Below are positions 5,207 to 9,382 of a stretch of 64,000 nt of DNA, one piece after another (the first letter of the stretch is position 1; every line of letters starts with the position of its first letter). Below the pieces are notes generated by a model. That model saw nothing but the letters and a program-made list of their open reading frames with translations, ran no database searches and was not told where the DNA came from. The translations under genes were made by a program, and so were the position numbers. Source of the DNA: Granulicella arctica (GTDB lineage Bacteria > Acidobacteriota > Terriglobia > Terriglobales > Acidobacteriaceae); NCBI RefSeq assembly GCF_013410065.1, contig NZ_JACCCW010000001.1:868001-932000 (forward strand). Direction: 5' to 3'.

Positions 5207-5680
5207 TTACTGGAGCAGGGCGTGGGTTGAGCCGACGAGTTCGCGGTAGAGGTTTTTTGCGTCGGTGCCGCCGATGAGGATGGTGTCGTTGTGGGTGAGC
5301 CATGCGTGGGCGGCGAACTGGCCCTGCTCGTCCTTGCGAGCGCCGATGTGGAGGTCGGTTGGGATGTTGCGGCTGGCCAGGAGCATGCGGAGAGCAAGGG
5401 CGCGGATGAGGCAGTTGGCGAAGGTCAGGCGACGGCTGCTCTTCTCCAGGGCATGGATGGCGGGAGCGATCTCGGAGGGTAGCGTGGCGGCTTGCGTATT
5501 CGCCGCGCTGGGAGCGAGATCCAGGTTGCCGAGGGCCAGCAGCGTGCGGGTCGAGACGCTGACGGTCGCGACTTTGGCGCAGAGGAGGTAGAACGTGGTT
5601 TCTACGATGAGCCAGCGGTCCTCGCGGGAGAGGCGCATGAAGCGATTGAGAGCGTAGGCGGCTCGAACGATGCGGTGCAT
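5207..5680 (-). CDS. Lasso-peptide B2-type transglutaminase-like leader peptidase
   Basis: The 157-residue protein matches the lasso-peptide B2 family (Transglut_core3 type), cysteine proteases that remove RiPP leader peptides. The catalytic Cys lies in ANCLIRALALRMLL and the catalytic His in FAAHAWL, followed by an Asp-containing segment, giving a Cys-His-Asp arrangement. The open frame extends upstream to 5881, but the ATG at 5680 lies 2 nt past the stop of the preceding nucleotidyltransferase gene and gives the normal family length. It is the last dedicated gene of the RiPP-like operon that begins with the precursor at 9382. Confidence 0.85.
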   Translation of the reverse strand: MHRIVRAAYALNRFMRLSREDRWLIVETTFYLLCAKVATVSVSTRTLLALGNLDLAPSAANTQAATLPSEIAPAIHALEKSSRRLTFANCLIRALALRMLLASRNIPTDLHIGARKDEQGQFAAHAWLTHNDTILIGGTDAKNLYRELVGSTHALLQ

Positions 5681-5682
5681 GG

Positions 5683-6891
5683 TTAGCGAACCGACCGGGC
5701 GGCCACGGCTGTCTTGGTGACGAGGCGTTGCGGTCCGTATTTTTTCAGAAGCCGGACGATGCGGAAGAGGTAGTTTATGAAGAACAGCGGCCGGTTGTGT
5801 ACGGGGACGAACAGGTCTTCGTAGTTCAGCTCCACCAGGGGCTGCACAGCATAGAAGATTCGGTCGCGAAGACGTGGGCAAAGTAAGGAAATAGGCGCTC
5901 TTTTTGCACGGGTCGAGATGGAATCCGTTTGCCCGCTCATGACGTGGGCGACGAGATCTTCGGCGAGAGCGACGATTTTGGGGGCGCGTTGCAGCGCTTC
6001 CACCGCGATCGAGGGGAGCTTCAAACTATAGATGTTTGCGGTAACCGCAAGACCGAGGAGGACGACGGAGTCCTTTTTGGATTTACGGAGGGCGAGGAGA
6101 AGGGCCGGCCAATCGAGCTTATCGCGATAGACGTGAAGGAACTGTGCGATGTCGCAGCACCATTTCAAGCGATCCCAGTAGTGCTTGGTCGCGTGGGCGC
6201 AGAGGCTGACGAGCAGATCATCGGGGCGTTGTATGCGCAGTTCGACGTCGGCGAGGGGCCAGGGTATGTCTGCGCGTTCAATATCCTTCTGCGCATCCTG
6301 CCACAGATGGAAGCGGGCGGGCATGATCTGTAGATGGAACTCGATCAGGAGCGACTCGGTGGGTCGGGCAAAGCTGAACTCTCGGTGGAGTGTGAAGATG
6401 TAGAGATCTTTGCTCTCAGTGTCGGAGCTTTCGAGCAACCGATAGCCGAGCCGACGCGTGACACTCATGACCTGCTGAAGATCTTCCTCTCGAAAGAGGA
6501 AATCGAGATCCGACGAGTCGCGGAGTGCGGCTGATCCATAGAGCAACCACCCTACCGAAGGCCCTTTCCAGGCCAAAACGGTAATGCCGTGGCTGTCGAA
6601 CTCACGCTGCAACTGGACGAGCGCCAGAGTCTGGATGAGGCTTCGGTGGAGATACTTTGCCTGATGCTCCTGCAACATGGAGATGACAGGCGCAGGGATT
6701 GCCTGACTTGCGGATGGGGGGGATGAAGATAGCAGCCTGGAGGCTAAGAGCGGAAACATGCCATGCCAGGCTGCGAGCTCGAAGAGCCGAGTCCAGTCGA
6801 TCGAGGTAAGGTCTTGTGTCAGATCACGGCCCGCCCCGGAATGAGGCGGAAGACATTCCGCCAGAAGGCGCATTTCGGGAGTGGAAGCCAT
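5683..6891 (-). CDS. NTP_transf_5-type nucleotidyltransferase in RiPP-like operon
   Basis: This 402-residue protein belongs to the uncharacterised nucleotidyltransferase family PF14907. The signature is VLAWKGPSVGWLLYGSAALR followed by DSSDLDFLF (about residues 100-130), with the DxD pair expected to bind metal. A helical C-terminal half follows. Members occur beside HprK-like kinases in lasso-peptide clusters, where related proteins have been linked to further modification of a phosphorylated peptide. Here it sits between the PqqD-like gene (14 nt gap) and the B2 protease (2 nt gap), so it is very likely co-translated with them. Substrate is unknown. Confidence 0.8.
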   Translation of the reverse strand: MASTPEMRLLAECLPPHSGAGRDLTQDLTSIDWTRLFELAAWHGMFPLLASRLLSSSPPSASQAIPAPVISMLQEHQAKYLHRSLIQTLALVQLQREFDSHGITVLAWKGPSVGWLLYGSAALRDSSDLDFLFREEDLQQVMSVTRRLGYRLLESSDTESKDLYIFTLHREFSFARPTESLLIEFHLQIMPARFHLWQDAQKDIERADIPWPLADVELRIQRPDDLLVSLCAHATKHYWDRLKWCCDIAQFLHVYRDKLDWPALLLALRKSKKDSVVLLGLAVTANIYSLKLPSIAVEALQRAPKIVALAEDLVAHVMSGQTDSISTRAKRAPISLLCPRLRDRIFYAVQPLVELNYEDLFVPVHNRPLFFINYLFRIVRLLKKYGPQRLVTKTAVAARSVR

Positions 6892-6905
6892 GATTCTGTC
6901 GGTAA

Positions 6906-7184
6906 TCAGTTCGATGGTTGTTGGATAAGCTTTTTGGCCTCAAGCTGGGCGAGGAGAGCATCGAGGTCGGCGGCAAGAACCGTCGGCTCAACGTCAAACT
7001 CGTTCAAGAGGATGGATTGAATCTTTTCGCGAGTCAATCCCTCCGAGAGGAGCTTCCAGAAGCGGCTGGCGACTGGAGATAAGCCGAAGTACATTCCGGA
7101 GCTCATATCAAGGACAACCGTTTCGTCGTTGAGGGACTCCGAAAGGACATATTTGGGAATTGTGATAGTTGAATCAGGTGTCAT
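6906..7184 (-). CDS. PqqD-family RiPP recognition element (RRE)
   Basis: A 92-residue PqqD/lasso-B1-like protein. Family features are the N-terminal strand pair (TITIPKYVLSESLNDETVVL), the MSSGMYFGLSPVASRFWKLL segment near residues 27-46, and a helical C-terminus ending DALLAQLEAKKL. RRE proteins bind the leader of a RiPP precursor and bring it to the processing enzymes. In lasso systems they recognise a YxxP leader motif, which is present in the small protein at 9209-9382. It lies between the radical SAM gene (72 nt gap) and the nucleotidyltransferase gene. Confidence 0.85.
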   Translation of the reverse strand: MTPDSTITIPKYVLSESLNDETVVLDMSSGMYFGLSPVASRFWKLLSEGLTREKIQSILLNEFDVEPTVLAADLDALLAQLEAKKLIQQPSN

Positions 7185-7256
7185 ACATATTCTCCGTCCA
7201 TCGAATAATCTACCAACGCACTCATAAACGTCTAGTCAATCTTCATCTCATGCCCA

Positions 7257-8276
7257 TTACATCGGAGACGGGGTGAGTGCACGCAATTCGGGGCTTGTCT
7301 GGCTGTAGAGGTGTGCAGCCGCAATGGCCATACGAACTCCATCGTCGTCGAGGCGCTCTCGGATACGCTGAACGACGGCAGGGACGTCGTTCATATCGAG
7401 GCAGAGCTCGCAGATGCCGGTGTAACGATCTCGCACGGGCAGCAGGCCGCGGAGCGAAGGCTCATCCTTGATGAGCTGGAAGAGCCCGTAGGGTCCAATG
7501 CTGCTGATGGCTTCGACGAGGGGATCACGAACGGCGCGATGGAGGATGCTGTCGAGGTCTTCGTCAGCGGTATTGCCAAGGACGAGGGGCGACGACGGCT
7601 TCTTGGCGAAGCGTGCGGGACCGCAGCAGGCGTAGACGTTGCCGTCCGGTTCGATGACGGCCTGTAGCGCTGTGGAGCAGCCACCCTTTCCAGCGAAAGC
7701 CTTGAAGGTGAAATGCTCCTCCGGCAAGGTTGCTGCGGTGCCTAGACGCAAGACACTGACCTTCTGGTAGTTCACGTCGATATTGACGAGCTTCTGTTCG
7801 ATGCGCGGGTTGGGGCCGAAGGCCGACATGACACCACGGACAAAGTTCGGCAGGCCAATCTCCTTGCAGATTTCTACGAGAAGAAGGGCGTTTTCAGCGG
7901 GAGAGAACTCCTCGTGATAGTCGTCCCAACTGACGAGCAAGGTATCGAGGCCGGCTTCCTTGAGGCCCATCATCCGCTCGCGCGCGATCTCGGGTTTTTT
8001 CTGACTGACCCAGCCGCCGCCGGTAACGAGCGTAGCTTTAAGGCCCAGTTCCTTGGCTTGCCTGATAAGCGGGAGAATTTCGTTGTAATAGAGAAGCGGT
8101 TCGCCGCCGGTGAAGCAGACCTGATCCGAGTATTTCGGGATGATTTTGAGGTACTCGCTCGCCTGGGCAGGTGTCATTTTGTCCGTCTCTTTCGGAGACG
8201 ATTCGATAATGCAGTGCCTGCAGGCTAGAGGGCAGGTCCGAGTGTAGAGCAGGCCGAAGACGGTGTATCGGATCAT
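7257..8276 (-). CDS. Radical SAM peptide-modifying enzyme
   Basis: The 339-residue protein has the radical SAM cluster motif CPLACRHC (Cys15, Cys19, Cys22) and the SAM-binding GGEP at 57-60. The C-terminal third has extra cysteines in GGCS, YACCGP and GICELC, resembling an auxiliary-cluster (SPASM/twitch-like) region. Such enzymes install thioether, C-C or epimerised residues in RiPPs, and others have unrelated roles. There is no B12-binding domain. Its ATG overlaps the stop of the kinase gene (ATGA), indicating translational coupling. In this operon it takes the place where a lasso cyclase would be expected. The reaction cannot be predicted from sequence alone. Confidence 0.87.
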   Translation of the reverse strand: MIRYTVFGLLYTRTCPLACRHCIIESSPKETDKMTPAQASEYLKIIPKYSDQVCFTGGEPLLYYNEILPLIRQAKELGLKATLVTGGGWVSQKKPEIARERMMGLKEAGLDTLLVSWDDYHEEFSPAENALLLVEICKEIGLPNFVRGVMSAFGPNPRIEQKLVNIDVNYQKVSVLRLGTAATLPEEHFTFKAFAGKGGCSTALQAVIEPDGNVYACCGPARFAKKPSSPLVLGNTADEDLDSILHRAVRDPLVEAISSIGPYGLFQLIKDEPSLRGLLPVRDRYTGICELCLDMNDVPAVVQRIRERLDDDGVRMAIAAAHLYSQTSPELRALTPSPM

Positions 8277-9202
8277 AGAGTGGCCTCGCTAACATCTTTC
8301 TGTATGAACTCGTAGACCTCTGGAAGCCGATCAAGGGACCGGGGAACGCGCAGAATGGATACGGGAACTTGTCGCGCTACCTCGGCCAAACCCCGAAATC
8401 GGTCATCTACCAAGGGAAAGTGGTCCAGTTTCTTTGAATTAGGGAGGGTGTAGTGGAGGTAAGAAGCGACCGCGCAGACCGCATCGATGCCAGTGATCCG
8501 CTGCGCCTGTGGAGCCATCGTCGCAGGAGCTGGTTTTAGAAGATAGATATGACGTAACGGGGATGCGTCGGGCGAGTAGTTTGCCGCACGATAGCCGAGG
8601 TCTTCCGCAGCGCGATATGGGCGATAGAACGGGATCGCCGGCTGAACATCGGCGTAGCTTTGCCGATGAATCGCGATATGGTCGTCGGTGACCAGAGCAT
8701 GTCCTTCCGTGAGGAAATAGTTCAGCAAAGTAGACTTTCCGGCGTGAGATGGGCCGAGAACGGCTACGCAGCCAGCAGATGATTCAGAGGTAGTATCGTT
8801 ATTCGACGTCGTCCTGAAAGCCATGCCATGAAGGAACTCCGTGGAGCCTCTCAGAAAGACATAGAGTGGAATGATCTGCTGAAGGATCCAGTACCGCAGC
8901 GATTCGTCGGACATTTCGTGTACAGCAAGACATTGGATTGTGTTGGACGCAATCCAGTACTGAATATCGAGAATGGAATCGATCTGCACGGCGACGTAAA
9001 GATCGTGATAGACGATGTGAACGGTTCTGTCCTGAGCGTAGCAAGGACCTATCGGCTCGCCAGGATCTTTTTCGAAGCTTGCGATGCGTTGAACGTCGAG
9101 CGTAATCGTAGAGCCGTCCCGGACGGTGCGAGGGAGAGTGTCAAAAAGCAGGTTGCTTTCGATACTCTCCCCGTACACCGTATAGACGTCGCTGACCTTC
9201 AA
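8273..9202 (-). CDS. HprK-like kinase of RiPP-like operon
   Basis: This 309-residue protein has the P-loop of HPr kinase C-terminal domains (LGPSHAGKST, 149-158) and the downstream acidic pair TDDHIAI (172-178). It lacks the usual HprK sensor organisation and has its own N-terminal region. Related kinases in lasso clusters phosphorylate the C-terminal Ser of the peptide; the candidate precursor here ends in Gly, so another residue would have to be the target. The likely start is TTG at 9202, 6 nt after the precursor stop, with an alternative GTG at 9178. Its 3' end overlaps the radical SAM start by 4 nt. Confidence 0.82.
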   Translation of the reverse strand: MKVSDVYTVYGESIESNLLFDTLPRTVRDGSTITLDVQRIASFEKDPGEPIGPCYAQDRTVHIVYHDLYVAVQIDSILDIQYWIASNTIQCLAVHEMSDESLRYWILQQIIPLYVFLRGSTEFLHGMAFRTTSNNDTTSESSAGCVAVLGPSHAGKSTLLNYFLTEGHALVTDDHIAIHRQSYADVQPAIPFYRPYRAAEDLGYRAANYSPDASPLRHIYLLKPAPATMAPQAQRITGIDAVCAVASYLHYTLPNSKKLDHFPLVDDRFRGLAEVARQVPVSILRVPRSLDRLPEVYEFIQKDVSEATL

Positions 9203-9208
9203 CGTTAC

Positions 9209-9382
9209 CTACCCAATGACTGCGACGGCAATGGAAGGCGTGAGGATGAGCACAATCGATGGGTCGAGTTCGTCAGGATTCATAAGACCGAAGATTTTGG
9301 TGCGCTCGGCGAGCGAACCGTATTCGGTCAACGTGGGTTTGGTGTAGGTGACTTTCGCGTTTGTAACAGTTTGCTTGCTCAT
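9209..9382 (-). CDS. Candidate RiPP (lasso-like) precursor peptide, 57 aa
   Basis: The ATG at 9382 is preceded by GGGGGA at good spacing; an upstream in-frame start at 9430 is less likely. The first half looks like a lasso leader: Tyr13-x-x-Pro16, Leu18, Gly22 and Thr28 in YTKPTLTEYGSLAERT match the YxxP-L-G-T pattern bound by B1/RRE proteins. If cleavage follows Lys29, so that Thr28 is the penultimate leader residue, the core starts IFGLMNPDELD. Asp37 and Glu38 then fall at core positions 8 and 9, where lasso ring acceptors lie. The remaining tail is hydrophobic and ends AVAVIG. There is no Cys and no C-terminal Ser. It is the first gene of the operon. Confidence 0.75.
   Translation of the reverse strand: MSKQTVTNAKVTYTKPTLTEYGSLAERTKIFGLMNPDELDPSIVLILTPSIAVAVIG

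What the first reader, a model, noticed from the sequence alone, without database searches (positions are those of the whole stretch)
5207..9382. Six-gene RiPP-like operon with radical SAM enzyme and no lasso cyclase
Seen: adjacent minus-strand genes with gaps or overlaps of 2-72 nt encode a YxxP-leader peptide, HprK-like kinase, radical SAM enzyme, PqqD/RRE, PF14907 nucleotidyltransferase and lasso-B2-type protease. Known: lasso clusters need an Asn-synthetase-like cyclase with B1 and B2; kinases and nucleotidyltransferases are accessory. Inference: without a cyclase in the cluster and with a radical SAM enzyme in its place, the mature product may be a radical-SAM-modified and phosphorylated or nucleotidylated peptide, not a standard lasso peptide.
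Basis: partly seen in the sequence, partly recalled or inferred. Interest (0 to 1): 0.86.

Follow-up and report, generated by a model that had tools for sequence, protein, structure and literature searches.

The report
Lasso-peptide machinery running without its cyclase
A soil bacterium carries a small, complete set of genes that looks like a lasso-peptide factory from which the knot-tying enzyme is missing and in which an enzyme resembling a known maker of mirror-image amino acids is present, so it probably makes a new kind of modified, unknotted peptide.

Summary
Minus-strand 5207-9382 is a compact six-gene operon: a YxxP-leader peptide, an HprK-like kinase, a radical SAM enzyme, a PqqD/RRE, an NTP_transf_5 protein and a lasso-B2-type protease, with no cyclase. 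Four other Acidobacteriaceae carry the same six genes in the same order, also without a cyclase. Three of these five genomes showed no lasso-type cyclase anywhere, so the absence is not an assembly gap.

In Methylocystis, Methylococcus and Verrucomicrobiota relatives the same radical SAM family sits in clusters with a lasso cyclase; 7 of 9 such cores carry Asp at ring position 8 or 9. In Acidobacteriota the cyclase is absent and the ring acid wanders.

The radical SAM enzyme matches the peptide epimerase EpeE/YydG far above other solved structures. Its eight invariant cysteines align with EpeE cysteines, including H-donor Cys223; EpeE Asp210 is not conserved. The core has no Cys, which argues against thioethers.

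Best reading: a lasso-related pathway making a linear peptide with D-residues, possibly phosphorylated or further decorated. Gene set, cyclase absence and fold are shown; the chemistry is inferred. My searches found no published cluster of this kind.

The parts
9209..9382 (-). Precursor peptide, 57 aa: lasso-type leader ending YTKPTLTEYGSLAERTK, then predicted core IFGLMNPDELDPSIVLILTPSIAVAVIG
   Evidence: ORF; NF033521 lasso leader 20.7 bits against cut-off 19; homologues beside the radical SAM gene in 7 of 7 acidobacterial loci
8273..9202 (-). HprK/PEPCK-fold kinase, 309 aa; H125, G155, K156, T158 and D173 invariant in a 40-row alignment
7257..8276 (-). EpeE/YydG-like radical SAM enzyme, 339 aa; C15, C19, C22, C200, C217, C218, C289, C292 invariant in a 60-row alignment
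6906..7184 (-). Stand-alone PqqD/RRE (B1-like), 92 aa
   Evidence: PF05402 59.9 bits; best NCBIfam hits are lasso PqqD models, below their cut-offs
5683..6891 (-). NTP_transf_5 (PF14907) nucleotidyltransferase-fold protein, 402 aa; GS...DLD motif present
   Evidence: PF14907 152.5 bits; alignment of 8 rows
5207..5680 (-). Lasso-B2-type (Transglut_core3) leader protease, 157 aa; Cys and His invariant in 10 aligned B2 rows

Best explanation
The operon is a RiPP pathway that descends from, or shares an ancestor with, radical-SAM-containing lasso pathways and works without a lasso cyclase. The PqqD protein binds the YxxPxLxxxGxxxxxT leader. The EpeE-like radical SAM enzyme abstracts Calpha hydrogens in the hydrophobic Ser/Thr-Val/Ile tail and its Cys218 gives a hydrogen back from the other face, leaving D-residues. 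The HprK-like kinase, and perhaps the NTP_transf_5 protein, decorate a Ser or Thr of the core. The B2 protease then cuts after the leader's T-K and releases a linear peptide of about 28 residues. Shown here: gene set, conservation, cyclase absence, fold and catalytic-residue matches. Inferred: every chemical step, the cleavage point, the modified residues, and that the product is linear.
Against: The window core and the three other cores of its genus from loci keep D8, three of these four also E9, a lasso ring position; and this genome owns a lasso-type cyclase elsewhere (L014). In Methylococcus (L158) a full cyclase coexists with a core that has no acid at 7-9, so a missing ring acid does not prove a missing cyclase. 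EpeE Asp210, which was mutated for structure 8ai6, is Ser in the family profile and Gln205 in the window. TIGR04078 scores 82 bits against a cut-off of 300; structural identity to EpeE is 17-18%. Eight remoter radical SAM relatives (L043-L050, 25-31% identity) showed no cyclase or peptide hit, so wider family function is open. S-[VI] was noticed first and tested after; rows are related, controls are shorter cores. The kinase could explain Ser/Thr conservation as well. 10 of the 17 acidobacterial-type cores are proteins whose gene neighbours were not seen.
Confidence: 0.55

Rival explanations
1. The radical SAM enzyme acts on this peptide but makes something other than D-residues (for example desaturation, hydroxylation, a C-C or ether crosslink, or cleavage).
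For: EpeE Asp210 is not conserved; TIGR04078 is far below cut-off; radical SAM folds carry many chemistries.
Against: EpeE stands about 10 Z units above the other listed structures and the residue aligned to its donor Cys is invariant in 60 rows; cores lack Cys, Tyr and Lys in 17 of 17 loci and Trp in 16, which argues against thioethers and the common aromatic crosslinks.
Confidence: 0.27
2. In this genome an unlinked lasso cyclase (the L014 cluster) closes an 8- or 9-residue ring at Asp8/Glu9, so the product is a lasso with extra tailoring.
For: Core keeps D8/E9; a lasso-type cyclase of 628 aa lies at G000:C1 about 335.3-337.2 kb.
Against: G187 has the same operon and a D8/E9 core but no lasso-type cyclase was found; L014 has its own PqqD and B2; the acid wanders in relatives. 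The L014 cyclase scores 80-118 bits against the cyclases outside its own group, a little below the 94-216 that radical-SAM-cluster cyclases of different groups score against each other, so this comparison is weak.
Confidence: 0.12
3. The operon is a decaying lasso cluster that lost its cyclase and makes nothing.
For: Rare and patchy: 5 of 398 family genomes; ring acid not held.
Against: All six frames are open in 5 of 5 loci, catalytic motifs are kept, the operon sits beside the same mutM-like gene in two species, and two genomes have extra peptide-RSAM loci.
Confidence: 0.06

Closest known systems
Epipeptide pathway of Bacillus subtilis (YydF/EpeX and radical SAM epimerase YydG/EpeE)
   Same: Radical SAM fold over 306 residues, CxxxCxxC, five aligned C-terminal cysteines including the H-donor Cys223; a Val/Ile-rich core without Cys here, and Val/Ile as YydG targets in print
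   Different: 17-18% identity; Asp210 not kept; lasso-type leader, PqqD, kinase, NTP_transf_5 and B2-type protease as partners
Tailored lasso peptides with kinase and nucleotidyltransferase (paeninodin, pseudomycoidin)
   Same: YxxP leader with Thr at -2, PqqD (B1), B2 protease, HprK-like kinase, nucleotidyltransferase-family protein (their gene sets partly recalled, partly PMC9266682 passages)
   Different: No cyclase; no C-terminal Ser, the phosphorylated residue in those peptides; radical SAM enzyme added
Radical-SAM-containing lasso-type clusters of Methylocystis, Hyphomicrobiales, Methylococcus and Verrucomicrobiota found here (L035, L037, L162, L158-L161, L041)
   Same: Same radical SAM family (39-49% identity), with kinase, NTP_transf_5, B2 and PqqD in most, a related leader and, in Methylocystis, a similar core start (AIGL) and tail
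   Different: Full-length lasso-type cyclase present; Asp at core 8 or 9 in 7 of 9 cores
MS-271 lasso peptide with epimerase MslH
   Same: A lasso pathway with a peptide epimerase
   Different: MslH is a metallophosphatase-superfamily enzyme acting on C-terminal Trp (PMC9266682 section 7), not a radical SAM enzyme; a cyclase is present

Membership tests
Lasso peptide | Leader with YxxP motif and Thr at -2 | tested here: met
   YTKPTLTEYGSLAERTK; NF033521 above cut-off; Thr -2 from PMC10885120 passage
Lasso peptide | B1 (RRE) and B2 protease | tested here: met
   PF05402 and NF033537 above cut-off
Lasso peptide | Asn-synthetase-like lasso cyclase in the cluster | tested here: not met
   None in the operon or its four six-gene relatives; none of lasso type found in three of the five genomes
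Lasso peptide | Asp/Glu at core position 7-9 | tested here: inconclusive
   Present in the window core (D8, E9) but in only 9 of 17 acidobacterial-type cores
Lasso peptide | Threaded macrolactam product | not testable with these tools
   Needs the compound
EpeE-type radical SAM epimerase | CxxxCxxC and the C-terminal auxiliary-cluster cysteines | tested here: met
   C15, C19, C22 and C200, C217, C289, C292 invariant in 60 rows and aligned to EpeE Cys; that these four bind the cluster is inferred, ligation not tested
EpeE-type radical SAM epimerase | H-donor cysteine (Cys223) | tested here: met
   Aligned to C218; the 8ai3 sequence has Ala there and its title says C223A
EpeE-type radical SAM epimerase | Asp210 | tested here: not met
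   Aligned to Ser of the profile, Gln205 in the window
EpeE-type radical SAM epimerase | NCBIfam TIGR04078 equivalog cut-off | tested here: not met
   82.4 against 300 bits, so not filed as YydG
EpeE-type radical SAM epimerase | Makes D-Val/D-Ile in a peptide | not testable with these tools
   Needs an enzyme assay
HprK/PEPCK-type kinase | HprK-like P-loop fold with GK(S)T and catalytic His/Asp | tested here: met
Phosphorylated lasso (paeninodin type) | C-terminal Ser as phosphate acceptor | tested here: not met
   Window core ends in Gly; the seven acidobacterial locus cores end G, F, F, F, V, L, T; two metagenome cores (P0144, P0169) do end in Ser

The most novel reading that the evidence does not exclude
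A new RiPP class: linear, D-amino-acid-containing and phosphate- or nucleotide/sugar-decorated peptides made by lasso machinery that dispensed with its cyclase. Its sister group, radical-SAM-epimerised true lasso peptides in methanotrophs and Verrucomicrobiota, would join threading and radical epimerisation in one molecule.
Probability: 0.4. Interest if true: 0.84.

Novelty: new variant of a known kind. Interest (0 to 1): 0.68.

Why it matters
Lasso biosynthesis is taken to need protease and cyclase working together. This lineage separates them: leader, RRE and protease are kept, the cyclase is absent, and a radical SAM enzyme recurs with the same peptide family in clusters with and without a cyclase. 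That makes the question of how a RiPP class changes product type directly testable, gives matched pairs with and without the cyclase, and offers a candidate radical SAM epimerase outside epipeptides and proteusins. Mining that asks for a cyclase would overlook the acidobacterial clusters (inference).

Tried and rejected
Rejected: (a) cyclase lost by assembly error: neighbouring genes are 2-72 nt apart or overlap, contig C1 is 2.16 Mb, and G187 has the same B2/mutM-like junction. (b) Radical SAM enzyme as cyclase replacement: it lies beside a full-length cyclase in 8 of 10 non-acidobacterial loci of 39% identity or more; of the other two, L039 has a short 407-aa cyclase frame and L036 ends about 1.3 kb past the RSAM gene and is undecided. 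(c) The 441-aa Asn-synthase-like protein (G000, G187, G284) as a hidden cyclase: it sits in its own operon, occurs in 6 of 61 relatives, four of which had no radical SAM match, and was not found in G452 and G461. (d) Thioether chemistry: no Cys in 17 of 17 locus cores (one metagenome core, P0140, has Cys).

Led nowhere: promoter scan, 0 sigma-70-like sites against 2.6 expected; terminator-like sites 6 against 3.9. No precursor recognised in the separate L014 lasso cluster.

Limits: in the radical SAM tree of 22 rows the seven acidobacterial rows form one side of a branch with support 81/83, unstarred; parsimony over 14 rows with a coded state (L039 coded as cyclase-bearing; L015, L017, L036 not coded) gives one change; two outgroup rows have long branches, so the direction of change is not shown. 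The 59-hit peptide search gave 49 fetched rows: 16 held-out, 22 controls chosen by eye as ordinary lasso-leader peptides with unseen neighbours (P0150 and P0152 have identical cores), and 11 left out as the same or nearly the same as locus peptides; some held-out rows are still close to locus peptides. One search listed 120 of 263 RSAM proteins; 59 of them plus the window made A3. L033 lies in G452 (=G687) and L034 in G461 (=G688), counted once. Of the 79 loci only L033-L050 were opened. In one search two of five genomes (G078, G383) had only remote hits (28-29% identity), not followed up beyond cyclase and B2 counts for G078.

Literature: 9 searches over open-licence PMC papers; in the listings and passages seen there was no radical-SAM-epimerase/lasso cluster. 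Subscription papers are not held, so 'not in print' means these searches only. Seen as passages: PMC9266682 (plus its section 7), PMC8326336, PMC5682303, PMC7074687 (antiSMASH calls one lassopeptide cluster in Granulicella sp. WH15, no gene detail seen), PMC12710340, PMC10885120. All others: search listing only.
Full report

THE GENOME. PF00733 finds one full-length lasso-type cyclase (126.7 bits), in a separate cluster with its own PqqD and B2 at about C1:333-337 kb, about 0.54 Mb away. A second peptide-kinase-RSAM set lies on C2 (L015), with no PqqD, NTP_transf_5 or B2 seen beside it.

RELATIVES IN ACIDOBACTERIOTA. The radical SAM profile matches 5 of 398 family genomes at 1e-40, so the system is rare; it is as rare around Methylocystis (2 of 298) and Methylococcus (3 of 301). 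All five acidobacterial genomes carry the six genes in one order: window, G187 (L016), G284 (L018, Pseudacidobacterium ailaaui by contig-length match), G452 (L033/L148) and G461 (L034/L149, Acidipila sp. EB88). None has a cyclase in the locus. G187 also has a peptide-RSAM pair (L017). In G187 the operon ends at the same mutM-like gene as in the window.

NO LASSO-TYPE CYCLASE FOUND IN THREE OF FIVE. G187: three partial PF00733 hits of at most 39 bits, which are PF03054 (MnmA-type), QueC and a 441-aa orphan. G461 (88% complete): two hits, PF03054 and QueC. G284: two AsnB-like proteins at 309 and 315 bits with no B2, PqqD or leader peptide found beside them, the 441-aa orphan at 56 bits, and three weaker hits not typed. 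Cyclases of radical SAM clusters that were scored give 77-158 bits, and the three tested by Pfam (L158, L037, L162) carry GATase_7, as do L014 and L163. G187 and G284 each have a single B2, the one in this operon. G000 and G452 each have a separate lasso-type cluster (L014, L163).

RELATIVES ELSEWHERE. A genome-contig scan gave 79 loci, of which L033-L050 were opened; two more came. Outside Acidobacteriota there are ten loci with a radical SAM enzyme of 39% identity or more: eight have a full-length cyclase (L035, L037, L162, L158, L159, L160, L161, L041), L039 has a short 407-aa cyclase frame and L036 is cut off by its contig end. The cyclases of L158, L037, L035 and L041 have the lasso cyclase model NF033535 as best hit, below its cut-off of 525. 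Eight remoter loci (L043-L050, 25-31%) showed no cyclase or peptide hit. So the radical SAM enzyme is not a substitute for the cyclase; it is a shared partner of a lasso-type pathway. A tree of 22 enzymes puts the seven acidobacterial rows together with support 81/83, unstarred, and needs one change of cyclase state over 14 coded rows. The direction is not shown; loss in Acidobacteriota is the simpler story because two other phyla have the cyclase.

THE PEPTIDE. The leader boundary is set by the invariant Thr at -2 of lasso leaders (PMC10885120 passage). With it, 22 of 22 control lasso-leader peptides have D/E at core 7-9, which supports the boundary. Cores from cyclase-bearing radical SAM clusters (L039 included, L036 left out) have it in 7 of 9, each with D8 or D9; both exceptions are Methylococcus, one of them with a full cyclase, so a missing ring acid is not by itself proof of a missing cyclase. 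Acidobacterial-type cores have it in 9 of 17 (4 of 7 from loci, 5 of 10 from other proteins), and the first acid wanders over positions 1, 3, 6, 7, 8, 11 and 12. Three of those ten other proteins (P0134, P0144, P0169) share a contig length with a listed radical SAM protein (by eye); for the rest no radical SAM neighbour was looked up. P-[DE] occurs in 15 of 17 acidobacterial-type, 1 of 9 cyclase-bearing and 0 of 22 control cores. The tail pair S-[VI] occurs in 16 of 17 locus cores (shuffle mean 6.0), 12 of 16 held-out and 2 of 22 controls (Fisher 8e-5); it was noticed first and tested after, rows are related, and controls are shorter. Window and Methylocystis cores share x-[FI]-G-L after the leader and a similar C-terminal segment, so the core itself looks related.

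OTHER STEPS. B2 keeps Cys and His in 10 of 10 aligned rows; the Asp of L014 and L163 at a third position is Gly in this operon and in the cyclase-bearing L037 and L162, so that change does not follow cyclase loss (its catalytic role is recalled). In pseudomycoidin the kinase and nucleotidyltransferase act on a C-terminal Ser (PMC9266682 passage); no locus core here ends in Ser, so their target must differ or lie inside the core; Ser and Thr occur in all 17 locus cores. No exporter gene lies in the window operon; one relative (L158) has an ABC exporter.

VERDICT. A real, conserved, rare pathway; cyclase absence is genuine; product probably linear and epimerised. New variant of a known kind, with a real chance of being a new RiPP class.

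Noticed in passing
L158:5811-7843 and L039 (Methylococcus); P0135, P0149: Peptides with no Asp/Glu at core 7-9, only an Asp near the C-terminus (Asp17 in L158, L039 and P0135); in L158 a full lasso-type cyclase lies beside it. What that cyclase joins is unclear.
   Followed up: partly
L014:3276-7225 (G000:C1 about 333.3-337.2 kb) and L163:3432-9403: Separate lasso-type cluster shared by two Acidobacteriaceae: PqqD, a protein of about 450 aa, B2, cyclase (L163 also a 675-aa protein); no precursor peptide was recognised.
   Followed up: partly
L169:2860-6703 and L170:4426-8266: Conserved three-gene operon: a 441-aa Asn-synthase-like protein with no GATase domain detected, a radical-SAM-like protein (by eye) and an FAD-oxidoreductase-like protein (by eye); product unknown.
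   Followed up: partly
L015:7103-9188 and L017:8743-10037: Extra peptide-kinase-RSAM and peptide-RSAM loci without their own PqqD and protease, as if served in trans by the six-gene operon.
   Followed up: partly
window:9209-9382 and relatives: P-[DE] pairs recur in acidobacterial-type cores (15 of 17) and hardly elsewhere (1 of 9, 0 of 22); role unknown.
   Followed up: partly
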